Origin: Hydrogenovibrio sp. SC-1
GTDB lineage: Bacteria > Pseudomonadota > Gammaproteobacteria > Thiomicrospirales > Thiomicrospiraceae
Assembly: GCF_002848135.1 (NCBI RefSeq)
Contig: NZ_PKGB01000009.1
Location: 41,996 to 105,995, forward strand
DNA length: 64,000 bases
Reading direction: 5' to 3'
The notes below the pieces were generated by a model. The model ran no database searches. It was not told the origin of the DNA and was given only the letters and a program-made list of their open reading frames with translations. Of this stretch, positions 1-56,781 are shown in pieces; position 1 is the first letter of the stretch, and each line of letters begins with the position of its first letter. Position numbers and translations under genes: made by a program.

Positions 1-624
1 TACCCTGATGTGGCTGTAAATCGTCAGCAGTTAATCTCGAGTCTTTCTTTGCCCAGTTCCCCTTGTTGGCTAGATCAAGTGCACAGTGACCGTGTTATTC
101 AATGCACGAAAAACACTGACTCAACTTTTCTACCCCAAGCGGATGCCAGTTGGACAGACCAACACAATAGGGTGCTAGCCGTGATGACAGCAGATTGTTT
201 GCCATTATTAGTCAGAGATGTGTCTGGAACCGTAGTGGCGGCAATCCATGCGGGTTGGAAAGGGCTTTTGAATCAGATTATTATTAAAACAGTGTCGCAA
301 TTGCCTGTCGCCAGTGACCAGTTAGAAGTTTGGATTGGTCCAGCCATTAGCCAGCCCTATTTTGAAGTGGGTCAGGAAGTCCATCAACAATTTGTAGACG
401 TGGATGAGCGCTATCGTTCATTCTTTGCCCAGTCATCAGCAACAGGAAAATGGTTGCTAAATCTACCAGGCCTGGCAGAATTTCAGTTAAACCAATGTGG
501 TGTGACAAGCGTTCTTCAGAGTCAATTATGTAGTTACCATCAAGCCGAGTGGTTCTATTCCTATCGCCGAGAGGGGCAAACAGGGCGCATGGCTTCGTTA
601 ATCTGGATTGAGCAGTCTGATTAA
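1..624 (+). CDS. pgeF: Peptidoglycan editing factor PgeF / YfiH-type laccase-domain protein, 5'-truncated by window edge
   Basis: The frame is open from base 1, so the start lies outside the window; the GTG at 10 is internal, since the family has a conserved Asn-Arg stretch here. Visible YfiH/DUF152 motifs are QVHSD, the MTADCLPLL segment with the metal/catalytic Cys, and AAIHAGWKG with a metal-binding His. Family members are cytosolic zinc enzymes acting on purine nucleosides, and in E. coli PgeF removes misincorporated L-Ser from peptidoglycan precursors; which role applies here is inference. The gene converges on the antiporter gene with a 16-base gap. One copy of CCAGGCCTGG lies inside it at 466-475 and encodes Pro-Gly-Leu. 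Confidence 0.9.
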   Translation, partial: YPDVAVNRQQLISSLSLPSSPCWLDQVHSDRVIQCTKNTDSTFLPQADASWTDQHNRVLAVMTADCLPLLVRDVSGTVVAAIHAGWKGLLNQIIIKTVSQLPVASDQLEVWIGPAISQPYFEVGQEVHQQFVDVDERYRSFFAQSSATGKWLLNLPGLAEFQLNQCGVTSVLQSQLCSYHQAEWFYSYRREGQTGRMASLIWIEQSD

Positions 625-640
625 TGCCAAATGGTTCGCG

Positions 641-2620: not shown

Positions 2621-2636
2621 GACGGTCGTCTAATTC

Positions 2637-3479: not shown

Positions 3480-3508
3480 TTTTTGGTTTCTTAATAGTTA
3501 AAGTGTCA

Positions 3509-6316: not shown

Positions 6317-6345
6317 AAAACCACCCAGGCCTGGGTGGTTTTTTT
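6317..6345 (+). terminator. Bidirectional intrinsic terminator built on CCAGGCCTGG
   Basis: A perfect 26-base palindrome (6317-6342) made of an A-run, CCACCCAGGCCTGGGTGG and a T-run. It lies between the convergent flavodoxin and glycosyltransferase genes and can end both transcripts. The centre is the recurrent CCAGGCCTGG unit at 6325-6334. Confidence 0.88.
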
Positions 6346-6353: not shown

Positions 6354-7514
6354 CTATCCTTGATTGATGCTTGATTGATGTTTTTGGCAAAACTGCTGAA
6401 AGGAATGAGCAATATCATAATTTTCGATATGAGGCCGACTGTTAGATTGCCATAGCCGCAAAATATTTTGATCGGTTAAGACATTATATAAAGTCTGCTG
6501 CCAGACGTTTTGCTCATTCGCTTTTAAAATACAGCCCGTTTCGTTGTGTTTGATTAGGCTCTGAGGGCCACCAATATCTGATACTATGCAGCCCAGTCCG
6601 CTGGCCTGTGCTTCCATAATGACTTGTCCTAAAGTATCCGTTATCGACGGAAACACAAAAATATCGGATGATGCATAGAGCTTTGATAAAGCTTGACCTT
6701 GTATCGGTCCTAGAAAATGCACATGGTGATCTTGAGACTGATTTGCGAGTTTTCGAAATCTTCCCTCACCAACTAAAATCAAATCTGCTTCCAGCATAGG
6801 GTGAGCTTGCATTAGTGCTTGCCAGGTTTTGAGTAAGAAGGGGATGTTTTTTTCAACATTTATACGCCCGACATATAACACCTTAAGACGTTTTTCAGAC
6901 AAATTAAATTGGTTCCAAATGGCATTGGATTGATGTTTTGGGTTGAAACGCTCTAAGTTAGTTCCTGGTCGCAGGGTTGAAATTTGATTTGTTTTCAGTT
7001 GAATGTCAGTTTCCATGATGGGTAAGTAGGCATCAGAACGCGAAAAAACATGCTCAAATGGTCTGTAAAATTTCGCCATTATTTTGTCGGTTTGTTTTTT
7101 TAACCAGTTCGAATGGGTGAGATCCAGTATATAGGCTGGGAAGTCGGTATGATAAGTGCCAACCACTGGGATTTTAAGTTTCTCTGCCTCTTTCTTGGCT
7201 ATCCATCCCAAGGGGCCAGGGGTTGAAATGTGCACTTTATCAGGTTGATGCTGCAGTAAAAGTTGGGTAATCGCCTTGCGGCTGGGCCAGACGATATCCA
7301 ATTCTTGATAAAAGGGCATCGCCACTCTAAATCTCAGTGGTAAGTTATGAATATAAGACTTATCGGGAATGGGTTTTTGGGTGGCAGTGATGATTTGTAA
7401 ATCAAAATGCTCTGACGCCTGACTGTTATAATGAGCCTGTTCGCCCATATCTTGAATAAATCTAGAAACACCATTTAAATCGCCGAGCGTATCAGTAAAT
7501 AAGCAAACTTTCAT
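6354..7514 (-). CDS. GT4-family glycosyltransferase (glycolipid / alpha-mannosyltransferase-like), second of a tandem pair
   Basis: About 386 residues from the ATG at 7514 (MKVCLFTDTLGDLNGVSRF). An upstream in-frame ATG at 7616 would add 34 residues unlike the family and would read through the palindrome at 7597-7610, so I reject it. It has a GT-B fold: the N-terminal TDTLGDLNGVSRF and GTYHTDFPAYI loops, a LYVGRINVEKN nucleotide-site motif, and a C-terminal FVFPSITDTLGQVIMEAQASG segment equivalent to the EX7E motif of retaining GT4 enzymes. It resembles enzymes that add sugars to diacylglycerol or phosphatidylinositol. Sugar and acceptor are not decided by sequence; the neighbours suggest diacylglycerol. 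It is cytosolic or membrane-associated. Confidence 0.85.
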   Translation of the reverse strand: MKVCLFTDTLGDLNGVSRFIQDMGEQAHYNSQASEHFDLQIITATQKPIPDKSYIHNLPLRFRVAMPFYQELDIVWPSRKAITQLLLQHQPDKVHISTPGPLGWIAKKEAEKLKIPVVGTYHTDFPAYILDLTHSNWLKKQTDKIMAKFYRPFEHVFSRSDAYLPIMETDIQLKTNQISTLRPGTNLERFNPKHQSNAIWNQFNLSEKRLKVLYVGRINVEKNIPFLLKTWQALMQAHPMLEADLILVGEGRFRKLANQSQDHHVHFLGPIQGQALSKLYASSDIFVFPSITDTLGQVIMEAQASGLGCIVSDIGGPQSLIKHNETGCILKANEQNVWQQTLYNVLTDQNILRLWQSNSRPHIENYDIAHSFQQFCQKHQSSINQG

Positions 7515-7590
7515 GATCGTTATCATCCATCGATTATTGTTGAAAAGATACAGGGCGAATGATGGGTTGCCTATGGAGACTTTTTGACGG

Positions 7591-7610
7591 AAAAAAGACC
7601 AGGCCTGGTC
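7591..7610 (-). terminator. CCAGGCCTGG hairpin followed by T-run on the minus strand
   Basis: GACCAGGCCTGGTC (7597-7610) is a perfect palindrome. Read on the minus strand, the direction of both glycosyltransferase genes, it is followed at once by six T residues (A-run at 7591-7596). It lies right after the stop of the first glycosyltransferase gene and could attenuate the second. The hairpin has essentially no loop beyond its own GGCC centre, so efficiency is uncertain. Confidence 0.5.
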
Positions 7611-7615
7611 ATTCA

Positions 7616-8662
7616 TTAATCCTGTTTAAAATATGTTGGGTCAATTACGGCAAGGTGACTTAAAAATTGTTTGGTTGCACCTTGCCAAGTATAGGTTGGA
7701 ATGGATTCAGCAATCTTTTTGGGGTGTGTTTTCAGTTCAAGCGCTTGCTGAATGGCGATGGCTAAATCTTCATTTAAATAGCCATTCACACCCGGGGTAA
7801 CGATATCTTTGGGTCCCGTCACCGGAAAGGCTGCGACGGGGGTGCCACATGCAATGGCCTCTAAATTTACAACGCCAAAAGTATCTGTTAGCGATGGAAA
7901 AACAAATACATCTGCACTAGCGTAATAACTTGCCAACTCTGCACCTGACTTGGGTCCAACAAAATCAACATCGGGATAAGCTTTTTCTAGCGTTGCCAGA
8001 TCTGGTCCTCTTCCAACCACCACTTTTTGTCCAACGAGGTTTAAGTCCAAAAAACTGAGGAGATTTTTTTCCGGCGCAATGCGACCCACATATAAGTAGA
8101 TGGGTGTTTTATAGCCTAAGTCCGTTCTTGCTTGCGGATTGAAAATATTGGTGTCTACACCTCGGCTCATCAAAACCATTTTTGGAAATCCTTGCGATTT
8201 TAATTCATTCAGCACACTGGGTGCAGGCACCAGTGTCCGTTCCGAATGACCGTGAAATCGTCGCAAAATGGCATAAATCCAACTCTTAGGAATGGGAAAA
8301 CGCGCATGAATGTATTCTGGATATTTAGTGTGGTAAGCCGAGGTAAAAGGCAAATGGTGTTTTATTGCAACGCGCCTTGCTTTCCAGCCTAAAGCGCCTT
8401 CAGTCGCAATATGAATGGCATGGGGTTGAAATTGTAATATTCGTTTTTCTAATCCCTTGCTTCGCCATACGAAAGGGATTTCAGGATAGGTCGGTAGAGG
8501 CAGGTGCTGATAATTATTCGGCTCAATCACATCCACTTCAATTTGTTGGCTTTGTAAGTGATTAACCAATTGTGACAGGGTCGTGACAACCCCATTGACC
8601 TGTGGTTTCCAAGCATCGGTCACCAAGGTAATCCGTTGAATGGGTAGCTGACGGTCCTGCAT
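7616..8662 (-). CDS. GT4-family glycosyltransferase, Agt/MgtA-like (candidate diacylglycerol glycosyltransferase)
   Basis: 348 residues. The N-terminus TLVTDAWKPQVNGVVTTL is the signature of the GT4 subgroup containing alpha-glycosyl-diacylglycerol and sulfoquinovosyl-type lipid glycosyltransferases. Further motifs are AYHTKYPEYIHARFP, LYVGRIAPEKNLLSF (donor site) and FVFPSLTDTFGVVNLEAIACG (retaining-enzyme EX7E region). The ATG at 8662 has a good AAGGAAG ribosome site. It is divergent from the PlcP-like gene across a 180-base spacer holding a PHO-box-like array. PlcP and Agt pairs are known to swap phospholipids for glycolipids under phosphate starvation in other proteobacteria; assigning this gene to that role is inference from context. 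Confidence 0.86.
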   Translation of the reverse strand: MQDRQLPIQRITLVTDAWKPQVNGVVTTLSQLVNHLQSQQIEVDVIEPNNYQHLPLPTYPEIPFVWRSKGLEKRILQFQPHAIHIATEGALGWKARRVAIKHHLPFTSAYHTKYPEYIHARFPIPKSWIYAILRRFHGHSERTLVPAPSVLNELKSQGFPKMVLMSRGVDTNIFNPQARTDLGYKTPIYLYVGRIAPEKNLLSFLDLNLVGQKVVVGRGPDLATLEKAYPDVDFVGPKSGAELASYYASADVFVFPSLTDTFGVVNLEAIACGTPVAAFPVTGPKDIVTPGVNGYLNEDLAIAIQQALELKTHPKKIAESIPTYTWQGATKQFLSHLAVIDPTYFKQD

Positions 8663-11460: not shown

Positions 11461-11487
11461 AAAATCAACCAGGCCTGGGGGATTTTT
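11461..11487 (+). terminator. Probable terminator after dgkA with CCAGGCCTGG core
   Basis: AAAATC (11461-11466) pairs with GATTTT (11481-11486) around CCAGGCCTGG (11469-11478), followed by T-rich sequence. The stem has mismatches between the two parts, so the strength is moderate. Confidence 0.6.
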
Positions 11488-16415: not shown

Positions 16416-17021
16416 ATGCAAACCGAGTCGATCAAGCAGTTTGAGATTTCTAAAATTGAAAAAGTCTATGATGGTTTTTTCAAAATGCATCAAATCACTT
16501 TTCGGCATGGTTTATATCAAGGGGGCTGGTCTGAGCCTTTGATTCGAGAGTTATTTGGCCGAGGCCAGGCAGTCGTGGTTTTGTTGTATGATTCGAAAGC
16601 ACAACAAGTGATTCTGATTGAGCAAATTCGTGCGGGAACTTTACAGCATGCGACTGGTAATAATGCCCAGGCCTGGTTGATTGAACCGGTTGCAGGCATG
16701 ATTGAAGCCGGTGAATCGAAGCTGTCGGCTTGCCAGAGGGAAACCCGAGAGGAAGCCGGTGTTGAAGTCAGCACATTTGAGCCGATTTGTCACTTTTACC
16801 CCAGTCCTGGTGGCAGTGATGAAGTACTGTATTTATATGGCGCAGAAGTGAATGTTGATGATTTGCCTGATTACGCGGGTGAAGCCAGCGAGATGGAGGA
16901 CATTCGGTTAATTAAAATGCCATTTCATGATGCCAAAGCCAAACTGTTGAAGGCCGAATTTAATGTTGCCAGTACCATCATCGGGTTGCAATGGCTGTTT
17001 TACCAAAAACTGGCCGATTAG
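16416..17021 (+). CDS. nudF: ADP-ribose pyrophosphatase (Nudix, NudF/TrgB type)
   Basis: 201 residues. A complete Nudix box runs from about residue 94 to 116 (GMIEAGE ... RETREEAGVEV), followed by the FYPSPGGSDEVLYLYGAEV segment typical of ADP-sugar pyrophosphatases, which hydrolyse ADP-ribose to AMP and ribose-5-phosphate. It sits three bases behind alr. A copy of CCAGGCCTGG lies inside at 16667-16676 and encodes Gln-Ala-Trp just before the Nudix box. Confidence 0.9.
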   Translation: MQTESIKQFEISKIEKVYDGFFKMHQITFRHGLYQGGWSEPLIRELFGRGQAVVVLLYDSKAQQVILIEQIRAGTLQHATGNNAQAWLIEPVAGMIEAGESKLSACQRETREEAGVEVSTFEPICHFYPSPGGSDEVLYLYGAEVNVDDLPDYAGEASEMEDIRLIKMPFHDAKAKLLKAEFNVASTIIGLQWLFYQKLAD

Positions 17022-18868: not shown

Positions 18869-19252
18869 ATGTCGAAATTATGTCCGTGTGGATCGAAAAA
18901 GACCTATTCAAATTGTTGTGAGCCTTTCCATTTAGGACAAGCCACAGCGCAAACGGCAGAAGCCTTGATGCGTTCACGTTACAGTGCCTATGTACTTGAA
19001 AATGAAACGTATTTGCTAAAAACCTGGGCAAAAACCACCAGGCCTGGTCAAATTCCCTTTGAAAAAGGGCTGGTGTGGACGAAGTTACGGGTGATAAAAA
19101 CCCAAAAAGGCCAAGCCACAGACACCGAAGGAAAAGTTTGGTTTAAAGCCTATTATCAACAGGCAGATCAAAAAGGGGTCATGAGTGAAAAAAGTTTCTT
19201 TATTCGAGATGAACAATCGCAATGGGTCTATGTCAACGGTGAGGTACGATAG
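18869..19252 (+). CDS. YchJ-like SEC-C motif protein (UPF0225)
   Basis: 127 residues. The SEC-C zinc motif CPCGSKKTYSNCC lies at 5-17, followed by EALMRSRYSAYV, the signature of the YchJ/UPF0225 family. Function is unknown; SEC-C motifs bind zinc and occur in SecA. The ribosome site is AAGGAAG. It overlaps nothing and lies ten bases after the MATE gene. A CCAGGCCTGG copy at 19038-19047 encodes Arg-Pro-Gly within a variable loop. Confidence 0.88.
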   Translation: MSKLCPCGSKKTYSNCCEPFHLGQATAQTAEALMRSRYSAYVLENETYLLKTWAKTTRPGQIPFEKGLVWTKLRVIKTQKGQATDTEGKVWFKAYYQQADQKGVMSEKSFFIRDEQSQWVYVNGEVR

Positions 19253-22013: not shown

Positions 22014-22025
22014 ACCAGGCCTGGT
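22014..22025. repeat. Intergenic ACCAGGCCTGGT palindrome
   Basis: A perfect 12-base palindrome 17 bases after the djlA-like gene. There is no T-run next to it, so it is not a classic terminator; it is listed as a member of the CCAGGCCTGG repeat set. The remaining sequence up to 22237 (about 210 bases) holds nothing else I can recognise. Confidence 0.6.
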
Positions 22026-31354: not shown

Positions 31355-32224
31355 ATGATTGACGCCCATCTGCCTTTAATTGATTTGCGTGCTGAGGATG
31401 CTTATCAATCTGGGCATTATCTTGAGGCAACCCACTTGCCGTGGCCAGATTTACAAACTCGTCTCAATGAACTACCCGAGCGCCCAGCAAGCTTGCAATT
31501 GCTGGGCGATGATCTGACACTCGCTACTGCCAGCGCCTTTTTAATCGATAAGGGCTATTCCATTTCGAATCAGATGACTCTTTATGCGTTTGAACAATAC
31601 TGCCAAAAACACCCAGGCCTGGTCGTTTTAGGTTCAGATTCTCGTGCATTATGGCAACCCACACCGCTATTATTAGAGTTTATTAAGCACCTTGAAAATA
31701 ACGATTTACCCTCAATGGTTTTATCAAATCGTCGCTTGGCATTGGATATCGGGTGTGGCGGTGGTCGTGATAGTGTTTATTTGGCGTTGCGTGGTTGGCA
31801 GGTGATTGCTATCGATCGAGAGCAACGGGTATTGCAGCGCGCTGAACAACTCGCGCAGTCAACGGGTCAAACAGTGCCGATTGATTGGCGGGCTTGCGCT
31901 GTTGAAGCGGATGGATGTTTGCCTGAGCAGCAATTGGACTTGATTGTGATGATGCGTTTTCTCAATCGATCTGTCGTTGCCCAAATGGCACAAATGCTCA
32001 AGCCAGGAGGGTATGTGGTGATACAAACGTTTGTTGAAGGTGTGGAGCAGATGGGATCGCCTAAAAACCCAAATTATATTTTAAAAAAAGGGGAACTGGC
32101 AAAAACCTTTGGTGCTTTTGACGTAATTGTTGATAGAATAGATGCCTTAAAAGATGGACGCCCTGTTGCGTCTTTTATCGCACAAAAACGGGAGACTGAT
32201 GATGTTAGAAATGAGCGCGGATGA
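31355..32224 (+). CDS. Rhodanese-like domain fused to class I SAM-dependent methyltransferase
   Basis: 289 residues. The first half (about 1-85) resembles a rhodanese domain (LIDLRAEDAYQSGHYLEATHLPW), but the active-site loop where Cys is expected reads QLLGDDLTLA, so sulfurtransferase activity is unlikely. The second half has SAM motif I ALDIGCGGGRDSVYLALRG near 129-147, motif II VIAIDRE and a later QMLKPGGYVVIQTF, like TehB/thiopurine methyltransferase-type enzymes. Substrate unknown. It follows truB by two bases and overlaps the next gene by 23 bases. A CCAGGCCTGG copy at 31613-31622 encodes Pro-Gly-Leu in the inter-domain region. Confidence 0.8.
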   Translation: MIDAHLPLIDLRAEDAYQSGHYLEATHLPWPDLQTRLNELPERPASLQLLGDDLTLATASAFLIDKGYSISNQMTLYAFEQYCQKHPGLVVLGSDSRALWQPTPLLLEFIKHLENNDLPSMVLSNRRLALDIGCGGGRDSVYLALRGWQVIAIDREQRVLQRAEQLAQSTGQTVPIDWRACAVEADGCLPEQQLDLIVMMRFLNRSVVAQMAQMLKPGGYVVIQTFVEGVEQMGSPKNPNYILKKGELAKTFGAFDVIVDRIDALKDGRPVASFIAQKRETDDVRNERG

Positions 32225-35571: not shown

Positions 35572-38484
35572 ATGACTGCTCATCATCCTGCCTTTGAATT
35601 TCAAAACGAACACGCGATTGACTCCCTAAAGCTCACCGTCCAACACTTTAAGCACAAAGTTACCGGTGCGGATCATTATCATTTAGCTGCCGACGATCCG
35701 CAGAATGTGTTTATGGTTGCGTTAAGAACGGTGCCGATGGATTCAACTGGGGTCGCGCATATTTTAGAGCATACAGTATTATGTGGTAGTGACCGTTATC
35801 CGGTTCGGGATCCATTTTTTATGATGATTCGGCGTTCATTAAACACTTTTATGAATGCGTTTACGTCAAGCGATTGGACGGCTTATCCATTTGCCACTGA
35901 AAATCGTAAAGACTTCCAAAATTTATTACAGGTCTATTTGGATGCTGTGTTTTTTCCAAAGATCGAACGCCTAGATTTTTTGCAAGAAGGGCATCGCTTA
36001 GAATTTGCAGAAATGGATAATCCTGAGTCGGAATTGACTTATAAAGGGGTGGTCTTTAATGAAATGAAGGGAGCCATGAGTTCGCCCGTTTCGATGCTTT
36101 GGCAAAAGTTTTCGGCTGAACTCTATCCCACTTCAACCTATCACTATAATAGTGGCGGTGATCCCGAAGACATCCCAGAATTAAGTTACGAGCAATTGGT
36201 CGACTTCCACCAATTTCATTATCACCCATCCAATGCAGTCTTTTTCACTTATGGGGATATTCCTGCTGAGCAACATCAAACGCAATTTGAGGCGCTAGCG
36301 CTGTCCCGGTTTTCTTCAACGGTTGATAAAGTTCGGGTCTCGACAGAGAATCGCTATACCGAACCAAAATCTGTCAATGGTCACTATGCGTTGAATGAGG
36401 CCGATTTAAGCCGTAAAACCCATGTGGTGATGGGGTGGTTATTGGGCGAAAATCAAAATCCAATGGATGTGCTCAAAGGGAATTTATTAAGTGCAATCTT
36501 ATTGGATAATAGCGCATCGCCTTTGCGACAAGCTTTAGAACAGTCTGAATTGTTGAATGCGCCATCACCTTTATGCGGGTTGGAAGATTCAAATAAAGAG
36601 ATGGTGTTTGCTGTTGGTGCGCAAGGGACGGACCCAGAACATGCTCAGGCAATTGAGACGCTCATTTTAACGACCTTGAAAAAGGTGGTGGATGAGGGCG
36701 TCGATGCAGACCAAGTAGAAGCGATGTTGCATCAATTAGAGTTTTCACAGAGAGAAATCGGCGGCGATAGTTACCCTTACGGATTACAGTTGATTATGCA
36801 ATCCATGGCGGGTGCGATGCATGATGGGGATCCGATTGCGCTGTTAGATACCGATGCTGCCTTGAAGCAATTACGCCTGGAAGCGGAAAACCCACGGTTT
36901 ATTCCCGAATTGATTCAACAGTGGATATTGGATAATCCGCATCGTGTCTGTTTAACCTTGGCTCCGGATGATCAGCTTTCGCAACAGCAAGAGGATGCCG
37001 AAAAAGCACGGCTATCCGCTATTCAGTCTGACTTGTCTGATGAAGAAAAACAGGCGATCGTCGCCCAATCGTTAGCCTTAAAGGCGCGTCAGGAGCAACA
37101 AGATGATGTGTCGATATTGCCAGAAGTGACGAAGGATGATGTGCCTGCAGAGATTAAACAAATCGATCCGACGCTAACCCATCAAGCCCCGAAACTGACT
37201 GCATATCAGGCAGGGACGAATGGCTTAACCTATCAACAACTTTTGCTATCCTTGCCTGACCTAACTGAGGGTGAACAGGCGGTATTACCTTTATTCAATG
37301 CCTGCTTAACGGAAATGGGGTCAGCAGGGCGAGATTATCTGCAAACCCAATCGCTACAAGCCGCGGTGACTGGCGGGCTTTCTGCACGCAGTGCCGTTCG
37401 GGCTCATCTATTTGACGATCAAGCCTTTTACAGTCACTTTATTTTGTCAGGTAAAGCGCTCAATCGGAATCAAAATGCATTGGCAGATTTGATGTTGGAA
37501 ACCCTACAGTCTGTAAGATTTGATGAGCGGGATCGGATTCAAGATTTAATCGGTCAAATTCGCACCTCAGTCGATCAAGGGGTGACAGGCAATGGCCATG
37601 GTTTAGCTATGTCCGCTGCGAACCAGAATGCCTCCGCTGTCGCCAGTTGGCAGTTTCAACGCACTGGGTTTGCCGGCATTCAAACCATTAAAGGTCTCTA
37701 CGATTCACTTTCTAACCCCAGTGGGCTAGATGACATCATTGATCAGTTTCAGTCGATTCAGGCCAAGTTATTACAGGCCGATAAGCAATCGTTAGTGATT
37801 GCGGATGAAAATGGTTTGGATGGGGCGATTAACAGTACACTGCGCTGGCAAGACTTAATGAAACAAACTTCGGCACAGCAGGGCTTACAATTGAGCGCTT
37901 CCCACCAAAAAATTCACCAGGCCTGGGTAACCAGTACCCAAGTGAATTTCTGTGCGAAGTCTTATCCAGCGGTGATGGCTGGGCATGCAGATGCCCCTGT
38001 GTTATCGGTGTTGGGTGCTTGTTTGCGAAATGGCTTTTTGCATGCTCAGATTCGCGAGAAAGGCGGGGCTTATGGCGGTGGTGCCAGTTATAACAGTGAA
38101 GCGGGTGCCTTTGCATTCTTCTCTTATCGCGATCCACGTTTATTAGAAACGCTGTCAGATTTTGATGTCGCTTTGGATTGGATCATGGGGCCTGAGGCCA
38201 CACAAGCGAAAGTGGATGAAGCCATTTTAAACGTGGTCAGTTCCATCGATAAACCCGGCTCACCTGCGGGTGAGGCTCGAAAGGCGTTTTATCAGTCACT
38301 TTATGGTCGAACCCATGATTTGAGAATGCAGCATCGACAAGGGGTTTTACAAACCACTTTAGCTGATTGCCAGCGAGTTGCGCAAACTTACTTGAAACCT
38401 GAAAAGGCCTCAGTGGCGGTATTAACGCACAGCGGTAAAGTGGCTGAATTGGAAGCAGACGGGTTTGATATTCATACCTTATAA
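35572..38484 (+). CDS. M16C-family zinc metalloprotease (presequence-protease/Cym1-like)
   Basis: 970 residues, typical of single-chain M16C peptidases related to mitochondrial PreP. The inverted zinc motif HILEH is at 63-67 with a downstream Glu in VVFNEMKGAMSS; the M16C linker domain lies near 460-540, and a C-terminal inactive half contains REKGGAYGGGASYNSEAG. It degrades unfolded peptides inside a closed chamber and has no signal peptide. It stands as its own unit after the pnp terminator. A CCAGGCCTGG copy at 37917-37926 encodes Gln-Ala-Trp. Confidence 0.9.
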   Translation: MTAHHPAFEFQNEHAIDSLKLTVQHFKHKVTGADHYHLAADDPQNVFMVALRTVPMDSTGVAHILEHTVLCGSDRYPVRDPFFMMIRRSLNTFMNAFTSSDWTAYPFATENRKDFQNLLQVYLDAVFFPKIERLDFLQEGHRLEFAEMDNPESELTYKGVVFNEMKGAMSSPVSMLWQKFSAELYPTSTYHYNSGGDPEDIPELSYEQLVDFHQFHYHPSNAVFFTYGDIPAEQHQTQFEALALSRFSSTVDKVRVSTENRYTEPKSVNGHYALNEADLSRKTHVVMGWLLGENQNPMDVLKGNLLSAILLDNSASPLRQALEQSELLNAPSPLCGLEDSNKEMVFAVGAQGTDPEHAQAIETLILTTLKKVVDEGVDADQVEAMLHQLEFSQREIGGDSYPYGLQLIMQSMAGAMHDGDPIALLDTDAALKQLRLEAENPRFIPELIQQWILDNPHRVCLTLAPDDQLSQQQEDAEKARLSAIQSDLSDEEKQAIVAQSLALKARQEQQDDVSILPEVTKDDVPAEIKQIDPTLTHQAPKLTAYQAGTNGLTYQQLLLSLPDLTEGEQAVLPLFNACLTEMGSAGRDYLQTQSLQAAVTGGLSARSAVRAHLFDDQAFYSHFILSGKALNRNQNALADLMLETLQSVRFDERDRIQDLIGQIRTSVDQGVTGNGHGLAMSAANQNASAVASWQFQRTGFAGIQTIKGLYDSLSNPSGLDDIIDQFQSIQAKLLQADKQSLVIADENGLDGAINSTLRWQDLMKQTSAQQGLQLSASHQKIHQAWVTSTQVNFCAKSYPAVMAGHADAPVLSVLGACLRNGFLHAQIREKGGAYGGGASYNSEAGAFAFFSYRDPRLLETLSDFDVALDWIMGPEATQAKVDEAILNVVSSIDKPGSPAGEARKAFYQSLYGRTHDLRMQHRQGVLQTTLADCQRVAQTYLKPEKASVAVLTHSGKVAELEADGFDIHTL

Positions 38485-39728: not shown

Positions 39729-39758
39729 TTAAAAGCAACCAGGCCTGGTTGCTTTTAA
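39729..39758 (-). terminator. Perfect 30-base palindromic terminator with CCAGGCCTGG centre
   Basis: A perfect palindrome between purB and roxA: arms TTAAAAGCAA and TTGCTTTTAA flank CCAGGCCTGG (39739-39748). Read on the minus strand it follows the purB stop by about 15 bases and ends in a T-run. Confidence 0.8.
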
Positions 39759-41185: not shown

Positions 41186-41279
41186 TCAAGCTAAAAATTG
41201 CGGCTATTATAACCGATTCTCTTTGATAATTGAGGGGAGAAGTCATCAGGCCTGGGTAAAATTGGATTCTGCTGAGTGA

Positions 41280-43253: not shown

Positions 43254-43952
43254 ATGAGCAAAGTCGTCGATTTAAAAGGTTCAATATTATCCTTAACGGT
43301 GTTAAGTCTTTTTAGTGATCAAATTGATGAGACCAAACAGGCGATTGCCGCAAAAATCGATCAAGCGCCCGATTTTTTTGTGGGGGTACCAGTGGTGTTG
43401 GCGCCGCAGGTTGCTTTGTCGGATCCCACTTTTTTAGCGCTATTGGTCGAATATTTACGGCAGCGTCAAATGATTCCCATTGGTGTTCGGACCGAAGATG
43501 AGGGAATTAAAGAACAGGCAGACTATGCAGGCCTGGCGGTTTTTCCCGTTGAAAAAGCAAAAAAATCGTCCAAGCAGTCTTCAGAAGTTCAGCCAGAGAC
43601 AGAACAAACCGGATTAAAGTCCGCCTTAATGGTTAAAGGCTCGGTTCGGTCAGGCCAGCAAATCGTGGCGAAAGACCGAGATGTGATTGTTATGGGTTCG
43701 GTGAATCCAGGCGCTGAAGTGGTCGCGGATGGGCACGTTCATGTTTTTGGCAAGGTCATGGGCAAGGTGTTTGCGGGTGCTGCGGGTGAAACCAGTGCTA
43801 AAATTTTTGCCAAGCAACTGTCCCCTGAATTAGTGTGTATTGCCGGACTCTATCAATTGTCTGAAGATATTGATCCCGCCTATCAAAAGGGTTTTGTTGA
43901 GGTCAGCTTGCAAGACAATAGATTGGTTTTTAACACGGGTTTATTGGGATAG
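43254..43952 (+). CDS. minC: Septum site-determining protein MinC
   Basis: 232 residues. MinC_N (about 1-105) and the C-terminal beta-helix with SVRSGQQIVAKDRDVIVMGSV, VVADGHVHVFGKVMGKVFAGA and the LSPELVCIAGLY segment. It inhibits FtsZ assembly away from midcell. First gene of minC-minD-minE. A CAGGCCTGG palindrome variant occurs at 43528-43536 inside the N-terminal domain. Confidence 0.96.
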   Translation: MSKVVDLKGSILSLTVLSLFSDQIDETKQAIAAKIDQAPDFFVGVPVVLAPQVALSDPTFLALLVEYLRQRQMIPIGVRTEDEGIKEQADYAGLAVFPVEKAKKSSKQSSEVQPETEQTGLKSALMVKGSVRSGQQIVAKDRDVIVMGSVNPGAEVVADGHVHVFGKVMGKVFAGAAGETSAKIFAKQLSPELVCIAGLYQLSEDIDPAYQKGFVEVSLQDNRLVFNTGLLG

Positions 43953-44836: not shown

Positions 44837-45091
44837 ATGGCATTATTAGATTATTTACTGGGACAACGGAAAAAGAAAACGGCCAATTTAGCCAAGGATC
44901 GGCTACAAATTTTATTGGCGCACGAACGTTCGGAACGTCATGCACCGGAGTACTTGCCTCAAATGCGCGATGAAATTTTAGCGGTGATTTCAAAATATGT
45001 GGAAATTGACCAGGAGCAATTGCAGATTTCCATTGATGAAGCCAATGGCTTTGAAGTCCTTGAATTGAATCTGGTATTGCCAGATAAATAA
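44837..45091 (+). CDS. minE: Cell division topological specificity factor MinE
   Basis: 84 residues. The N-terminal MALLDYLLGQRKK membrane-binding helix, the ANLAKDRLQILLAHERSERHAPEYL contact helix that displaces MinC from MinD, and the C-terminal beta domain are all present. Three bases behind minD. Confidence 0.97.
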   Translation: MALLDYLLGQRKKKTANLAKDRLQILLAHERSERHAPEYLPQMRDEILAVISKYVEIDQEQLQISIDEANGFEVLELNLVLPDK

Positions 45092-45148: not shown

Positions 45149-45162
45149 GACCAGGCCTGGTC
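45149..45162. repeat. GACCAGGCCTGGTC palindrome between minE and the csiV-like gene
   Basis: A perfect 14-base palindrome in the 102-base gap between convergent genes, with TTTTs on both flanks (TATTTT left, ATTTTG right). It could act as a weak bidirectional terminator. Confidence 0.6.
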
Positions 45163-45832: not shown

Positions 45833-48800
45833 GCGGATTCCTTGTTAGCAATGGTCGTCAGTAGTAGGTTAATGGCAGCAAGTCGCTGACTGACCTCGGG
45901 AAAATCATCAAAATATTTTAATTCACTTTGCCCTTTAAGTTGGTATTGTTTTGGATGATTTTGAATCAGTTGAATGAGGGCAAGGGGATCAATATTGGGT
46001 TGATTGCCAAACTGTAGGCGAATCATGCTGTCACTGGCTTCACATTTTTTCAGATTAAGTGCGTCTAACTTTAACTTTACCAGTGTAGCGGTAAACAGGT
46101 TTTGCACTTGTGGCGGCAGCAATCCAAAACGGTCAATCATTTCCACCTGCAGTTCTTGCAGCGCGTTTTCATCGCCAGCGCTGGCAATGCGTTTATAAAA
46201 TACCAACCGAGTATGAATGTCGGGTAAGTAAGTTTCTGGAATGAGAGTCGGTACGCCTAAATCCACTTCAGCACCACTGTGAAGCTGCGTATTGAGTTCG
46301 GGTTGGTTTCCGGATTTGAGTGCTTTAACCGCTCGCTCGAGAATTTCAGTGTAGAGACCAAAACCGATTTCTTGGATTTGTCCAGATTGCCCATCCCCAA
46401 GTAATTCACCCGCTCCGCGAATTTCCAGATCGTGACTGGCCAGCATAAAACCCGCGCCCAGGGTGTCGTGTTTAGCAATGGCCGTGAGTCGTTTTTCGGC
46501 ATCTTTGGTCATCAGTGATTTGCCGGCAGTGAAGAGGTAAGCGTAAGCCTTGTGGTGTGACCGACCCACTCGACCGCGTAACTGGTGTAACTGTGCCAAG
46601 CCAAATTTATCGGCTCGATGAATTAAAATAGTGTTGGCAGTGGGAATATCAATACCGGTTTCGATAATGGTGGTGCAGACCAGAATATGGAAGCGACGAT
46701 GGTAAAAGTCTTGCATGACTTTTTCCAGTTCTCGCTCATGCATTTGTCCGTGTGCCACTTCAATTTTGGCATCGGGCAGTAAGGCTTGCATTTCTTCAGC
46801 CATATAGTCGATTTTATCGACATTATTAAACAATAAATAGACTTGGCCGCCGCGACGAATTTCCCGTAGACAAGCTTCTTTAACTGTGTCGGGATTCCAA
46901 TCTTGCACAAACGTTTGAACCGCAAGGCGTTTTGCGGGCGGTGTGGCAATAATGGACAGATCTCGTAAATCATTCATGGCCATATTCAATGTGCGTGGGA
47001 TGGGCGTTGCGGTCATGGTCAACACATCAACTTCCGTTCTGAGTTTTTTCAATTGCTCTTTCTGGCGCACACCGAAACGATGTTCTTCGTCAATAATAAT
47101 TAAGCCGAGATTGCCAAACTGCATATCATTTTGAATGAGTTTGTGGGTGCCAATAATAATATCAACTTGGTTGTTTTTGACGGCCTCCAGGATTTGCTGG
47201 GTTTGTTTTGCAGTTTGAAAGCGGGATAAGCCTTCAATGCGGATCGGCCAATCGGCAAAACGGTCTTTGAAATTGTCTAAATGTTGTTGCGCCAGTAGCG
47301 TGGTCGGCACTAATACGGCCACTTGCTTGCCCGAGTAAGCGGCAACAAACGCAGCTCGCATAGCCACCTCGGTTTTCCCAAAGCCAACGTCGCCGCACAC
47401 CAAACGATCCATGGGTTTGGGTTGATGCATATCGTCCAACACGGCTTCAATTGCGGCTTGTTGATCGGGCGTTTCTTCAAACGGAAAGTTGGCGGAAAAC
47501 CGAGTATAGGCATCGTCATCTGTGGTATGAGCATGCCCAGGTTTGGCTTCTCGTTGCGCATAAATATCCAGCAGTTCAGCAGCAACATCATGCGCTTTTT
47601 CGGCGGCTTTACGTTTGGCTTTTTCCCATTTATCGGAGCCCAGTTTATGAAGTGGTGCTGTTTCTGCGCTGGCGCCAGTGTAACGGCTAATTAAGTGTAA
47701 TGACGTGACAGGGACATATAGTTTGGCGTCACTGGCATATTGAATCATTAAGAATTCAGTTTCTTCATTTTGTAATGAGAGGGTTTCGAGTCCTAAATAT
47801 CGACCAACGCCGTGGTCAAAATGTACCACAGGATCCCCAACCTCAAGTTCAATGAGGTTGCTGATGCCATTTTCGAACTCGCTATGTTTGCGCTTTCGGC
47901 GACGTTTTTGAATGACCGTTTGACCAAATATCTGCGTTTCAGACAGAATGCAGAAATCGGGCGTTAGAATGGACTCTTCCAATGGGCCAACCACGATTTG
48001 AAAAGGATCGGTGTTGTTTAAAAAGTCAGACCAGCTCTCAATTTGTTTGGGCAGTTTGGCTTTTAATTGTGGGGTACTGCCAAACAGTGTTAATAACGTT
48101 TCGCGGCGACCGGTGGATTCAGCGCAATAGAGAATGCGCTTTGATGATTGGGTGTGATACTGGTCAATAAACGCAACTAGTTTGGCAAAAGGGTAGTCGC
48201 TGTTAGTCTGGAGCGTTAAGTCGGGCACCGATTGGGTATTAAATTGAATACTGTCTTTGTCATCTGCAGCATTTTGCAGTTGTATCCGGTGAAAGGCTCG
48301 AAGTTCACTAAACACATCACTTTCAGAGAGAATTAATTCTTGAGGTTTGAGCAGCGGGTAATCTGGGTTATGCTGGGCTATATCAAACCGTTCTTGATAG
48401 TCTTGCCAGGTGTGCTGAATACCTGCACCAATGTCAGTCTCACTGAAAAAAAGACTGTTTTCTGGGAAGTAATCAAATAACGTGGCTACATCAGTATGAA
48501 ACAGCGATAGATAATATTCCAGCCCATCTAGGGTTTGGTTTTGCGTGACCGATTGATAGAGTTGGGTATTACGCACATTCTCACCAAAGTGGTGGCGGGC
48601 GTTTTGGCGAAACAGCGAAATGCCTTCCGCAGTCAAGTCATATTCTTTTGCTGGCAGTAGTTCAATGGCATCAATGGTGTCGATGCTACGTTGCGTTTCT
48701 GGATCGAAGCTGCGGAGGCTATCAATCTCATTATCAAATAGATCCAATCGGTAAGGGGTTTTGCTGCCAATGGGAAACAGGTCAATAATGGAGCCACGAA

Positions 48801-49317
48801 TAGCAAACTCACCATGTTCCATAACCTGGCTAACCCGTTTATAACTGCCATTTTCTAATTGTTGGCAAAAGGGTTCAATTTCAATTTCATCGCCTTTTTG
48901 CAACAGAAAGGTGAATTTTTCGATAAACGGGTGAGGAGCGACTTTTTGGATCAAAGTGCTGATGGGTAAAATTAGCACACCATTTGATAAACTGGGGAGT
49001 TGATAAAGGGTGGTTAAACGCTGAGAGATAATGTCTTGATGTGGCGAAAAATGGTCGTAAGGTAGGGTTTCCCATTCGGGAAAAGTTAAAATGGGCAGTT
49101 GATCATCACTAAAAAACTTGAAAAGCGAATGATATTGGTTGGCATTGGCCATATTTTCGGTTAGAAAAATCACCAGGCCTGGTTGTTTTTGTGCTTTTGA
49201 AATGACGGCCAGCGCGGTTTCGGCCGCATTGCGACAAGTCCAGTGTGAAAGGTGGCCCTTTAGCGGAAGCTTAGGGGTGTCTGTGAGTGCAGGAGCAGAT
49301 TTTTGAGCTGTAGGCAT
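45826..49317 (-). CDS. mfd: Transcription-repair coupling factor Mfd
   Basis: About 1163 residues from the ATG at 49317; a start at 49374 would add 19 residues, and neither has a convincing ribosome site. A UvrB-like module, RNA-polymerase-interacting domain (GDPVVHFDHGVGRYLGL), RecG-like translocase with Walker A CGDVGFGKTEVAMRA and DEEH box IIDEEHRFGVRQKEQLK, and a C-terminal TRCF domain. It removes stalled RNA polymerase and recruits UvrA. A CCAGGCCTGG copy lies at 49173-49182 near the N-terminus, encoding Gln-Pro-Gly-Leu. Confidence 0.96.
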   Translation of the reverse strand: MPTAQKSAPALTDTPKLPLKGHLSHWTCRNAAETALAVISKAQKQPGLVIFLTENMANANQYHSLFKFFSDDQLPILTFPEWETLPYDHFSPHQDIISQRLTTLYQLPSLSNGVLILPISTLIQKVAPHPFIEKFTFLLQKGDEIEIEPFCQQLENGSYKRVSQVMEHGEFAIRGSIIDLFPIGSKTPYRLDLFDNEIDSLRSFDPETQRSIDTIDAIELLPAKEYDLTAEGISLFRQNARHHFGENVRNTQLYQSVTQNQTLDGLEYYLSLFHTDVATLFDYFPENSLFFSETDIGAGIQHTWQDYQERFDIAQHNPDYPLLKPQELILSESDVFSELRAFHRIQLQNAADDKDSIQFNTQSVPDLTLQTNSDYPFAKLVAFIDQYHTQSSKRILYCAESTGRRETLLTLFGSTPQLKAKLPKQIESWSDFLNNTDPFQIVVGPLEESILTPDFCILSETQIFGQTVIQKRRRKRKHSEFENGISNLIELEVGDPVVHFDHGVGRYLGLETLSLQNEETEFLMIQYASDAKLYVPVTSLHLISRYTGASAETAPLHKLGSDKWEKAKRKAAEKAHDVAAELLDIYAQREAKPGHAHTTDDDAYTRFSANFPFEETPDQQAAIEAVLDDMHQPKPMDRLVCGDVGFGKTEVAMRAAFVAAYSGKQVAVLVPTTLLAQQHLDNFKDRFADWPIRIEGLSRFQTAKQTQQILEAVKNNQVDIIIGTHKLIQNDMQFGNLGLIIIDEEHRFGVRQKEQLKKLRTEVDVLTMTATPIPRTLNMAMNDLRDLSIIATPPAKRLAVQTFVQDWNPDTVKEACLREIRRGGQVYLLFNNVDKIDYMAEEMQALLPDAKIEVAHGQMHERELEKVMQDFYHRRFHILVCTTIIETGIDIPTANTILIHRADKFGLAQLHQLRGRVGRSHHKAYAYLFTAGKSLMTKDAEKRLTAIAKHDTLGAGFMLASHDLEIRGAGELLGDGQSGQIQEIGFGLYTEILERAVKALKSGNQPELNTQLHSGAEVDLGVPTLIPETYLPDIHTRLVFYKRIASAGDENALQELQVEMIDRFGLLPPQVQNLFTATLVKLKLDALNLKKCEASDSMIRLQFGNQPNIDPLALIQLIQNHPKQYQLKGQSELKYFDDFPEVSQRLAAINLLLTTIANKESAC

Positions 49318-49394
49318 GTTTAGTGTATAGGCAAATTTAAATTGATGGTATTCTAACAAAATTGAGTTAGGCATGAAGCGGGGTTTTACGATAA

Positions 49395-52831: not shown

Positions 52832-52874
52832 GTTTAATCGTCATAATGAAACTGATTTAACAGCAAGGAAAACT

Positions 52875-54125: not shown

Positions 54126-54813
54126 TTCCATTTTACAGGCCAATGGGCTAGAAAAAACATACAAAGATGGCAAGTTAGAAACGTCGGTAATTCAAGGGCT
54201 GGATTTTCGCTTAACGCCTTGTGAAAAGGTCGCGATTGTCGGCTCATCTGGTTCAGGCAAAAGCACCTTGTTGCACTTGTTAGCCGGTCTGGATCAACCG
54301 ACGGCAGGCGAAGTCACTTTAATGAATAACGCTTTTTCAACCTTAAATGATGTGAAGCGAGGACGACTACGCAATCAATATCTTGGGTTTGTCTATCAAT
54401 TTCATTTTTTACTGCCGGAGTTAACGGCGTTGGAAAACGTAATGTTGCCATTACGAGTACGACGTCAGGCATCAGGCCTGGCTGAAATGGAGGCTAAAGC
54501 GTTACTAGATCGGGTGGGGTTGTCACATCGATTAGGCCACAAGTCTGCTGAATTATCAGGCGGCGAACGCCAAAGAGTGGCCATCGCACGCGCTTTGATT
54601 ACGCGTCCAGCCTGTGTGCTGGCCGATGAACCAACTGGGAATTTGGATGAACACTCAGCACAGCAGGTGTTTGATTTGATGCTCACCTTAAATGAAGAAC
54701 AACAGACTGCATTGGTGGTGGTGACCCACGATTTGAATCTTGCTGCACAAATGGATCGAAGCTACCACCTGACCGAAGGGCGCTTTGATTTGCCAACAGA
54801 GCCAGTCGAATAA
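54118..54813 (+). CDS. lolD: Lipoprotein-releasing system ATPase LolD
   Basis: 231 residues. ABC ATPase with Walker A GSSGSGKST, Q-loop VYQFHFLLPELTALENVMLPL (LolD signature), ABC signature LSGGERQRVAIARAL and Walker B VLADEPTGNLDEHS. The ATG overlaps the permease stop (ATGAGTGA). It couples ATP use to lipoprotein release from the inner membrane. A CAGGCCTGG variant lies at 54473-54481. Confidence 0.95.
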   Translation: MSDSILQANGLEKTYKDGKLETSVIQGLDFRLTPCEKVAIVGSSGSGKSTLLHLLAGLDQPTAGEVTLMNNAFSTLNDVKRGRLRNQYLGFVYQFHFLLPELTALENVMLPLRVRRQASGLAEMEAKALLDRVGLSHRLGHKSAELSGGERQRVAIARALITRPACVLADEPTGNLDEHSAQQVFDLMLTLNEEQQTALVVVTHDLNLAAQMDRSYHLTEGRFDLPTEPVE

Positions 54814-54816
54814 ATT

Positions 54817-56781
54817 ATGTTATCCATCCAAGCAATTGACTTAATGGCGGGTAGTAAAGTTTTATTACAAAACGCCAGTTTGACACTTCATCCCGGACAA
54901 AAAATTGGCTTAATCGGGGCGAATGGTGCCGGTAAATCGACCTTGTTAAAGGCTGTGCTGAATCAAGTTGCTTTGGAAGCGGGCACGATTCAAATGCCTG
55001 AAAGTTGGTTGGTGGGTTATGTGGCACAAGAACAGAGTCATTTACATTTAAATGCGCTGGATTATGTCATGCAAGGGGATTCGCTTTATGCCAAGGTGCG
55101 CGCGCAAATTGATGCAGCCGAATTGAGCAACGCGCATGATGATCTAGTCAAAGCTTACGACCAGCTTGATTTGATTGATGGTTATGAAGTCCCTCAAAAG
55201 GCACAACAACTCTTGTTTGGGTTGGGCTTTAGTGAAGCCGATTTTGATAAGCAGGTCGGTTCGTTTTCTGGGGGCTGGCAAGTCAGACTTAAGCTGGCAG
55301 CCGCTTTGATGCAACGCGCAGATTTATTGCTGCTCGATGAGCCGACAAATCACTTGGATATTGAAGCTGTCGCCTGGTTGGTGCAGTGGTTAAAGCAATT
55401 TCGGGGTGCGGTGATGGTGATTTCGCATGATCGAATGTTTCTGGATGAAGTTGTGCAGGGCGTTGCCCATTTAGATCATCAGAAAATTCAGTTGTATAGT
55501 GGGAATTTTGCCGCATTTGAGCGACAACGCAATGCGCAATTAATGCAGCAACAAGCGTTGCATGATAAGCAAAAGCAACAGATGCAACATCTCAAATCCT
55601 TTATAGAACGCTTTAAAGCCAAAGCCAGTAAAGCGAAGCAAGCGCAAAGTCGGGTTAAAGCGTTGGAAAGGATGGAAACGGTTGCGGCAGTTCAGGCGAT
55701 GAACCCGTTTCAATTTCAAATTGCCGACCCGGATTTTTTACCCGATCCGATGTTGGAAGTAGAAGACCTACAGTTTGGGTATGAAACCAGTCCCATTTTA
55801 AATTCGGTGAATTTAACCCTGCGCGCAGGTGATCGCATTGGCTTGGTTGGTATTAATGGTTCCGGTAAGTCAACTTTATTGAAGTGTTTGATCAAGGAGC
55901 TTAAGCCCCAGCAAGGTAAAGTTTTGCATAGTAAGGGGTTAAAGATTGGTTATTTTGCACAGCATCAATTAGAAGCGTTAAACCCGCAACAGTCGCCTGT
56001 AGCGCATTTGTTAGCCTTGCCGGGTAATGATCAATCGCGAATAACCGATCAGCAAGCGCGTAATTTTTTAGGGCAATTTGGTTTTTCGGCGGATCAAGCC
56101 TTAAGTCCCGTAGTGGATTTTTCCGGTGGTGAAAAGGCTCGACTGTGTTTGGCGTTAATGATTTATCAAAAACCGAACCTAATTATTCTCGATGAACCAA
56201 CCAATCATTTGGATATGGAAACCCGTGATGCGCTTGAGTTGGCGTTGCAAGATTTTTCGGGGGCGCTTATTTTGGTCAGCCATGATCAGCATTTGTTGTC
56301 CAGCATTGTTGATCAGTTTTGGTGGGTGCATAATCAGCAGGTGACGCGTTATCATGGCGATTTAGAGGCTTATCTAAATCAGCGTTTACGAACCTTAAAA
56401 GAAAAACAACAAAGTGCGAATGCTGGCGCAAAAACAACCAGGCCTGGTGTAAATGGTGCCGAAAAATCGGCCGTTAATGATAAAAAGGCACAGCGTCAAC
56501 AGAACGCCGCCATGCGTCAACAACTGCAACAAGCAATGCGCCAGCCTAAGCAACGATTACAAAAGGTGGAGAAGCAGTTGTCCACGGCACAAAAGGCATT
56601 ATTGAATTGCCACCAGCAAATGGAAGACAGTCGTCTCTATGAGTCAGATCAAGCTGAATCACTTAAGGCTATTTTATTGGAAGAAGCCCAGCTTAAATCC
56701 GAAATAGATGACTTGGAAGAAAGCTGGTTAGAATTGGAATCTGAGCTTGAGACAATTGAAGCTCAGTTTGAAGCAAATTAA
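54817..56781 (+). CDS. ABC-F family ATPase (YheS-like)
   Basis: 654 residues, two fused ABC domains without membrane spans: Walker A GANGAGKSTLL (about 33-43) and GINGSGKSTLL (about 347-357), signatures SFSGGWQ and DFSGGEKARL, and Walker B LLLDEPTNHLD and IILDEPTNHLD. The Arm and P-site tRNA-interaction linker (KQKQQMQHLKSFIERFKAK) and a C-terminal coiled coil (about 540-650) fit the YheS/Uup group acting on stalled ribosomes. YheS is the closer match by eye. Three bases behind lolD. A CCAGGCCTGG copy at 56438-56447 encodes Arg-Pro-Gly in the linker before the coiled coil. Confidence 0.88.
   Translation: MLSIQAIDLMAGSKVLLQNASLTLHPGQKIGLIGANGAGKSTLLKAVLNQVALEAGTIQMPESWLVGYVAQEQSHLHLNALDYVMQGDSLYAKVRAQIDAAELSNAHDDLVKAYDQLDLIDGYEVPQKAQQLLFGLGFSEADFDKQVGSFSGGWQVRLKLAAALMQRADLLLLDEPTNHLDIEAVAWLVQWLKQFRGAVMVISHDRMFLDEVVQGVAHLDHQKIQLYSGNFAAFERQRNAQLMQQQALHDKQKQQMQHLKSFIERFKAKASKAKQAQSRVKALERMETVAAVQAMNPFQFQIADPDFLPDPMLEVEDLQFGYETSPILNSVNLTLRAGDRIGLVGINGSGKSTLLKCLIKELKPQQGKVLHSKGLKIGYFAQHQLEALNPQQSPVAHLLALPGNDQSRITDQQARNFLGQFGFSADQALSPVVDFSGGEKARLCLALMIYQKPNLIILDEPTNHLDMETRDALELALQDFSGALILVSHDQHLLSSIVDQFWWVHNQQVTRYHGDLEAYLNQRLRTLKEKQQSANAGAKTTRPGVNGAEKSAVNDKKAQRQQNAAMRQQLQQAMRQPKQRLQKVEKQLSTAQKALLNCHQQMEDSRLYESDQAESLKAILLEEAQLKSEIDDLEESWLELESELETIEAQFEAN

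What the first reader, a model, noticed from the sequence alone, without database searches (positions are those of the whole stretch)
466..56447. CCAGGCCTGG palindrome is massively over-represented across the window
Exact copies start at 466, 6325, 7599, 11469, 16667, 19038, 22015, 31613, 37917, 39739, 45151, 49173 and 56438 (13). Three 9-of-10 variants with the CAGGCCTGG core are at 41246, 43527 and 54472. A 10-mer should occur about 0.06 times in 64 kb of random sequence. Spacing is irregular, at one per about 4 kb. Seven of the 16 are intergenic although intergenic DNA is only about a tenth of the window. The unit is two CCWGG (Dcm-type) sites back to back around a GGCC. Unlike REP elements it has no longer conserved body, so it recalls the HIP1-type signature palindromes of cyanobacteria. 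Its purpose (methylation target, protein site, uptake or architectural signal) is unknown.
Basis: seen in the sequence. Interest (0 to 1): 0.75.

Follow-up and report, generated by a model that had tools for sequence, protein, structure and literature searches.

The report
Palindromic DNA uptake tags with dialects
This bacterium's genome carries 367 copies of a ten-letter palindrome, while close relatives carry different words in hundreds of copies; these words are likely tags for recognising and taking up DNA of one's own kind, which would make this only the third bacterial family known to use such tags.

Summary
The 13 copies of CCAGGCCTGG are real (chance 0.05); the whole genome has 367, the reversed control 0. 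It is not a bare 10-mer: flanks form a symmetric AAAAYRA-CCAGGCCTGG-TYRTTTT, inside genes too. Of 67 sampled copies 28 are intergenic (9% of the DNA), 27 of them within 45 bp of a gene 3' end.

Of 62 genomes in the family, 26 carry 234-856 copies. Others carry different words in large numbers: B CCCAACCTGG (400, 364), C CCCAGCCTGG (326), D ACCGGCCGGT (1025), E nCAGGCCTGn (466-1173), F GTCCCCGACTT (139). B, C and F are asymmetric, a GC-rich core plus one T-tract.

Copies are kept at orthologous places (16 of 18, 4.9 expected), arise without insertion where alignments are ungapped, and are missing from one low-GC stretch. The best reading is a DNA uptake sequence with dialects, a class stated to be known only in Neisseriaceae and Pasteurellaceae. 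Uptake and the receptor are not shown; density is lower than in those families. Main rivals: a chromosome-organising protein, HIP1-like methylation.

The parts
466..475 (.). A word, inside ORF 10-624 (+), read as Pro-Gly-Leu
6325..6334 (.). A word, intergenic, tail-to-tail, with hairpin-forming flanks and a T run
7599..7608 (.). A word, in the first codons of the longest form of ORF 6354-7616 (-); perhaps upstream of the true start
11469..11478 (.). A word, intergenic, 34 bp after the ORF that ends at 11434
16667..16676 (.). A word, inside ORF 16416-17021 (+), read as Gln-Ala-Trp
19038..19047 (.). A word, inside ORF 18869-19252 (+), read as Arg-Pro-Gly
22015..22024 (.). A word, intergenic, 17 bp after the ORF that ends at 21997
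31613..31622 (.). A word, inside ORF 31355-32224 (+), read as Pro-Gly-Leu
37917..37926 (.). A word, inside ORF 35572-38484 (+), read as Gln-Ala-Trp
39739..39748 (.). A word, intergenic, centre of a 30-bp perfect palindrome (39729-39758)
45151..45160 (.). A word, intergenic, tail-to-tail between ORFs ending at 45091 (+) and 45194 (-)
49173..49182 (.). A word, inside ORF 45826-49374 (-), read as Pro-Gly-Leu
56438..56447 (.). A word, inside ORF 54817-56781 (+), read as Arg-Pro-Gly
16801..16810 (.). one-mismatch variant CCAGTCCTGG
41246..41255 (.). one-mismatch variant TCAGGCCTGG, between two ORFs
43527..43536 (.). one-mismatch variant GCAGGCCTGG, inside an ORF
54472..54481 (.). one-mismatch variant TCAGGCCTGG, inside an ORF

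Best explanation
The palindrome is likely a DNA uptake sequence: a word that a surface DNA receptor of the natural-transformation machinery is predicted to prefer, so that the cell would take up DNA of its own kind, and that would therefore have multiplied in the genome by biased uptake and recombination. Shown: a 24-bp consensus (AAAAYRA-CCAGGCCTGG-TYRTTTT) in hundreds of copies; counterpart words in relatives, most of them with the same build (GC-rich core plus A/T tract), i.e. dialects; appearance by substitution at ungapped places of one aligned gene; strong keeping at orthologous places; placement at gene 3' ends; absence from one low-GC stretch; a ComEC (transformation channel) gene in 36 of the 37 genomes in which a word was found. 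Inferred: that these bacteria are naturally transformable, that a pilus-borne receptor reads the word, that uptake-driven recombination keeps it, and that the intergenic copies serve as terminators on the side. One way to picture the palindrome is as two overlapping, inverted half-words CCTGGTYRTTTT.
For: Enrichment: 367 against 0 reversed; 67 against 0.32 expected in 455 kb. Dialect counts over the family. Core plus AT tract in A, B, C, E and F and inverted pairs in B and C. 28 of 67 intergenic where 6 would be expected, 15 of 28 tail-to-tail, 0 head-to-head; extended hairpins in 12 of 28 intergenic against 2 of 39 intragenic copies. Orthologous keeping 16 of 18 against 4.9, P 2.7e-9. In comEC one aligned place carries the A word in 9, the B word in 3 and the bare E core in 3 of 24 genomes, by dialect except for G026 and G004. 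Even spacing of F (P < 0.0002), of the window's copies (P 0.006) and of C (P 0.004). A 38-kb stretch without copies, low in GC for most of its length. ComEC in 56 of 62 genomes. These are properties printed for DUS/USS.
Against: No uptake, transformation or binding was tested. No receptor found: the one minor pilin followed is also in word-less genomes, and its tree fits the dialects no better than ComEC's (5 changes each on 19 shared genomes). ComEC does not separate genomes with and without a word. G000 shows an MSHA-like pilus and no GspH/FimT match. Density (1 per 6.7 kb in G000, 1 per about 12 kb for F, 1 per 2.8 kb for D) is below the roughly 1 per kb printed for DUS/USS. Spacing is not significantly even on contig 1 of G000 (P 0.59; 0.07 without the gap) or for CAGGCCTG in G008 (P 0.60). 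The D word has only weak flanks.
Confidence: 0.7

Rival explanations
1. The word is the binding site of a nucleoid- or chromosome-organising protein (in the manner of Noc, SlmA or MatP sites, recalled) that needs sites spread over the chromosome; the dialects follow changes in that protein.
For: Two-fold symmetry of A with correlated flanks, spread-out and partly even placement and orthologous keeping would fit.
Against: B, C and F are asymmetric over 18-20 bp, unlike a homodimer's site; placement follows gene 3' ends, and hundreds of copies change identity between congeners. Macrodomain or replichore position was not tested.
Confidence: 0.14
2. A HIP1-like word: an orphan DNA methyltransferase and a methylation-directed repair process make and keep GC-rich palindromes, with alternates in relatives that changed methylase.
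For: HIP1 also is replaced by other palindromes in some relatives and deviates mostly at its outer positions (PMC4390886, abstract and passages); here 20 of 35 one-mismatch words differ at the outermost position.
Against: HIP extensions keep the palindrome (passage), while B, C and F are asymmetric and 18-20 bp long. A rough motif scan found no m5C methylase and two N4/N6 candidates in 521 kb of G000, but four fifths of the genome were not scanned, so this is weak.
Confidence: 0.1
3. Dispersed terminator or REP-like repeats spread by insertion, with no role in uptake.
For: 27 of 28 intergenic copies lie within 45 bp of a gene 3' end, with hairpin arms and T runs.
Against: 39 of 67 copies are inside genes with the same flanks; in comEC the word appears by substitution in ungapped alignment at column 3368 and nearly so at 3056; no conserved body beyond about 8 bp from the core apart from a slight A excess at -17/-18.
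Confidence: 0.04

Closest known systems
Uptake signal sequence (USS) of Pasteurellaceae
   Same: Hundreds of copies, GC-rich core with AT-rich segments at fixed distance, subclade-specific types, hairpins at terminators, not insertions, relatively even distribution (PMC1626085, PMC7811141, PMC1852404: passages)
   Different: USS is asymmetric with AT segments on one side only and about 1 copy per kb; here A, D and E are palindromic and copies are 3-12 kb apart; no shared core. A reference title speaks of palindromic USS in terminators (title only), which means paired copies
DNA uptake sequence (DUS) of Neisseriaceae, read by the minor pilin ComP
   Same: Eight dialects known, inverted pairs at terminators, motif more conserved than its surroundings, absent from recently acquired genes (PMC12616744 introduction; PMC3630211 and PMC2397512 passages)
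   Different: DUS is continuous, 10-13 nt, without flanking AT motifs and asymmetric; DUS dialects keep an inner CTG, whereas D and F share no core with A. Overlapping inverted DUS are mentioned for S. muelleri (passage) and may be the nearest likeness to the palindrome
HIP1 and alternate HIPs of cyanobacteria
   Same: Genome-wide GC-rich palindrome, replaced by other words in some relatives; deviations mostly at outer positions
   Different: HIP words and extensions are palindromic and tied to methylases; here three of six dialects are asymmetric and the conserved stretch is 18-24 bp

Membership tests
DNA uptake sequences (DUS/USS class) | Short word in hundreds to thousands of copies, far above chance | tested here: met
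   367 copies, reversed control 0; 67 against 0.32 in 455 kb
DNA uptake sequences (DUS/USS class) | Dialects that follow subclades | tested here: met
   Words A-F; B/C and E each one clade on the ComEC tree, all classes 7 changes against 10.3 shuffled
DNA uptake sequences (DUS/USS class) | Intergenic copies form hairpins at terminators, often as inverted pairs | tested here: met
   3 inverted pairs among 36 B copies and 3 among 20 C copies
DNA uptake sequences (DUS/USS class) | Conserved above surroundings and formed by substitution, not insertion | tested here: met
   16 of 18 kept against 4.9; comEC columns 3056 and 3368
DNA uptake sequences (DUS/USS class) | Under-represented in recently acquired DNA | tested here: inconclusive
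   One 38-kb gap, mostly 34-37% GC, whose second half reads as polysaccharide genes; no systematic test
DNA uptake sequences (DUS/USS class) | Density of about one per kb | tested here: not met
   1 per 6.7 kb (G000), 1 per 2.8 kb (D), 1 per about 12 kb (F); a usual, not a defining, property
DNA uptake sequences (DUS/USS class) | The word raises DNA uptake; a cognate receptor | not testable with these tools
   No uptake data; no receptor identified
HIP1-type palindromes | Palindromic word and alternates | tested here: not met
   B, C and F asymmetric
HIP1-type palindromes | Cognate methyltransferase | tested here: inconclusive
   Rough motif scan of about a fifth of G000
REP-like repeats | Longer body, extragenic, spread by insertion | tested here: not met
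   39 of 67 intragenic; substitutions without insertion in comEC

The most novel reading that the evidence does not exclude
A third bacterial family with self-recognising DNA uptake, evolved apart from Neisseriaceae and Pasteurellaceae, whose old uptake word is a 24-bp palindrome and whose members have rewritten it into at least five other words, some asymmetric, even within one genus.
Probability: 0.62. Interest if true: 0.9.

Novelty: new variant of a known kind. Interest (0 to 1): 0.82.

Why it matters
A 2025 paper states that only two families are known to discriminate DNA by a word at the uptake step (PMC12616744, introduction). A third family with six words and several switches would let one ask how a receptor and hundreds of genomic sites change together, test molecular drive against selection with independent changes, and look for receptors by matching words to surface proteins. 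It would also give a practical tag for transforming these bacteria.

Tried and rejected
Dcm/CCWGG methylation: B and C keep one CCTGG, D and F none. An oriented half-site hidden in A (one tract being enough): not supported, since left and right flank scores are not negatively correlated (r 0.26 with one-sided P about 0.05 in intragenic G000, 0.20 n.s. intergenic, 0.52 in G002/G009, 0.30 in ten other A genomes); in the E genomes r is -0.01, undecided. Chi- or KOPS-like strand polarity: B 205 forward and 195 reverse in G001, 198 and 166 in G010; replichores were not located, so this is weak, and I printed a hand-typed count of 68 for G010 that should read 64, not used here. ComEC as predictor of the word: no. 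The 296-aa minor pilin as receptor: in 55 of 62 genomes, all six sampled word-less ones included; its tree needs 5 changes of class on 19 shared genomes, as does ComEC's. GspH/FimT family in G000: no match. Viral contigs: none holds the 24-bp consensus, which says little. The genome-contig scan gave only distant PNPase homologues (80 loci) and was not used.

Words not found: 80-140 kb each of G012, G018, G037, G042, G043 and G047. 19 of the 62 genomes were not sampled, or too little (G007 22 kb, G017 4 kb), to look for a word of their own.

Full report
OBSERVATION. The window lies in a 2.45-Mb genome of 41 contigs (G000) with 367 copies and none of the reversed control. In 455 kb of G000 (window plus the stretches) there are 67 copies: 0.32 expected by a third-order Markov model, 35 one-mismatch words against 9.0 (20 of them at the outermost position), and 116 two-mismatch words against 118.9. 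A fifth-order model trained on the same DNA, hence inflated by the word itself, still gives only 2.9.

ANATOMY. Around 67 copies the flanks are conserved: A at -7 81%, -6 72%, -5 70%, -4 55%, C/T at -3 92%, A/G at -2 74%, A at -1 61%, counted over both sides. The word is thus AAAAYRA-CCAGGCCTGG-TYRTTTT. Intragenic copies keep these flanks (A at -7 74%), intergenic ones more strictly (91%). The two sides are not negatively correlated, and are positively correlated in G002/G009 (r 0.52) and in ten other A genomes (0.30); in G000 r is 0.26 and 0.20, not clearly significant. In G005/G006 (10 copies) the flank differs: G at -8, T at -6, -5 and -3.

PLACES. With a simple ORF and hexamer gene caller (coding fraction 0.908) 28 copies are intergenic and 39 intragenic (P 1.4e-12). 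All 28 lie in gaps bounded by at least one gene 3' end (80% of intergenic bases do), 27 within 45 bp of it and one 311 bp away; 15 are tail-to-tail (8.2% of intergenic bases) and none head-to-head (20.2%). Perfect palindrome extension of 6 bp or more occurs in 12 of 28 intergenic and 2 of 39 intragenic copies: intergenic copies look like bidirectional terminators, intragenic ones mostly do not. Intragenic copies read as Gln-Ala-Trp (19), Pro-Gly-Leu (15) or Arg-Pro-Gly (5). A 38-kb gap without copies on contig 1 (159.8-197.9 kb) falls from 42.5% to 34-37% GC; its second half reads by eye as sugar and polysaccharide genes; I did not read the first half.

DIALECTS. Of 62 genomes in the family, 26 carry 234-856 copies; the ten congeners split into 6 with 367-677 and 4 with 0-1; the 51 genomes of other families have at most 35, with reversed controls up to 13. 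k-mer scans of stretches from low genomes found other words. B, ACCCCAACCTGGYAGATTTT, in G001 and G010: 400 and 364 copies of CCCAACCTGG, at most 7 in the other 60. C, ACCCCAGCCTGGYAGATTTT, in G004: 326 of CCCAGCCTGG, at most 11 in the other 61. D, ACCGGCCGGT, in G031: 1025, at most 15 in the other 61. E, the A word with free outer core positions, in G021 and G025 by alignment and by counts also in G035, G053 and G061: CAGGCCTG 466-1173 with 15-44 full A words. F, GGGGGTCCCCGACTTTTT, in G016: 139 of GTCCCCGACTT, at most 1 in the 20 other genomes searched. B, C and F are asymmetric with one T-tract. Inverted pairs 26-34 bp apart: 3 among 36 B copies, 3 among 20 C copies (the C pairs read from the list). 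With G059 (106 A words) 37 of 62 genomes have a word; 6 sampled genomes show none; 19 were not sampled enough.

HISTORY. On a ComEC tree of 24 genomes the five classes need 7 changes (shuffled mean 10.3, as low in 0 of 200); A needs 4 and occurs in all main branches, so it is probably old (inference); B/C is one clade. In the comEC codon alignment one place (column 824, an indel-rich loop, so exact homology rests on the aligner) holds the A word in 9 genomes, the B word in 3 (G001, G010, and G004, whose own word is C, one letter away), the bare CAGGCCTG in 3 (G021 and G025 of dialect E, and G026 of dialect A), a one-mismatch A in 1 and nothing like it in 8, of 24. At column 3368 (ungapped) and 3056 (nearly so) the word appears by substitution. 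In four pairs of related genomes 16 of 18 copies are identical in the partner, against 4.9 expected from 10-mers of the same GC content (P 2.7e-9); in G005/G006 all 5 are kept while flanks are 55-82% identical; both losses, in G009, are CCAGGTCTGG. These pairs cover 13-19 kb each around comEC, so this is a local sample.

SPACING. F is strikingly even (CV 0.52, null 0.96, P < 0.0002; 100 of 139 copies, those listed); so are the window's A copies (0.50, P 0.006) and C forward copies (P 0.004). Not significant: contig 1 of G000 (P 0.59; 0.07 when split at the gap) and the first 64 CAGGCCTG of G008 (P 0.60, though short spacings are rare there, 5% against 22%). Contig 1 plus window: P 0.02.

MECHANISM. 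High copy number, dialects, core plus AT tract, inverted pairs and terminators, conservation above the surroundings, formation by substitution and fairly even spread are properties printed for DUS and USS (PMC12616744 introduction; passages of PMC1626085, PMC2397512, PMC7811141, PMC3630211, PMC1852404). The family carries ComEC (56 of 62; 36 of the 37 with a word, the exception G059 being 82% complete; 20 of the 25 others). G000 has an MSHA-like pilus cluster (MshL at its curated cut-off) and two neighbouring ATPase genes on contig 7 that I take for PilT and PilU by recall. I commit to biased DNA uptake; uptake, receptor and transformability are inferred. A change from a symmetric to an asymmetric word is easier to picture for a monomeric, pilin-like reader than for a homodimeric DNA-binding protein (inference).

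RIVALS. A chromosome-organising protein is not excluded. HIP1-like methylation shares palindromes, alternates and outer-position deviations (PMC4390886, abstract and passages) but does not account for B, C and F. REP-like or pure terminator readings fail on the intragenic copies.

NOVELTY. The exact word is in 11 held papers, none of whose titles or abstract openings concerns a bacterial genome repeat (listing). No held paper has 'uptake signal sequence' with Thiomicrospira, or 'uptake sequence' with Thiomicrospira, Piscirickettsiaceae or Hydrogenovibrio; most subscription journals are not in the library. The 2025 paper states that two families are known.

Noticed in passing
G000 contig 1:159.8-197.9 kb (L024, L025): 38 kb without the word, GC falling to 34-37%; the second half reads as sugar and polysaccharide genes, probably acquired
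   Followed up: partly
L026:16301-19520 (G000 contig 1:216.3-219.5 kb): Four copies of the word within 3.2 kb of a type II secretion gene cluster, much denser than average
   Followed up: no
L179 (G000 contig 14:1-15000): A pilus and conjugation-like gene cluster with its own secretion ATPases and two prepilin-like proteins
   Followed up: no
L225, L226 (G000 contig 3; G013 contig 1): The 296-aa minor pilin of G000 is nearer to that of G013, of another genus (66%), than to its congeners' (52% or less), unlike ComEC (38% with G013, 75% with G003): possible gene exchange
   Followed up: partly
G037 and G047, whole genomes: 15 copies each of the D word ACCGGCCGGT against 2-3 of the reversed control: perhaps a relic or foreign dialect
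   Followed up: no
L121-L125 (G004 contig 1:1-100000): Many 12-mers each occur 26-27 times, so a long unit is repeated there; neither its arrangement nor its nature was looked at
   Followed up: no
L131-L135 (G002 contig 1:1-100000): A second palindrome, TTGTTAACAA, 4 copies against 0.16 expected
   Followed up: no
L188, L189 (G005, G006): Same A core with a different flank (TTTTGA upstream in place of the A-tract): a flank sub-dialect
   Followed up: partly
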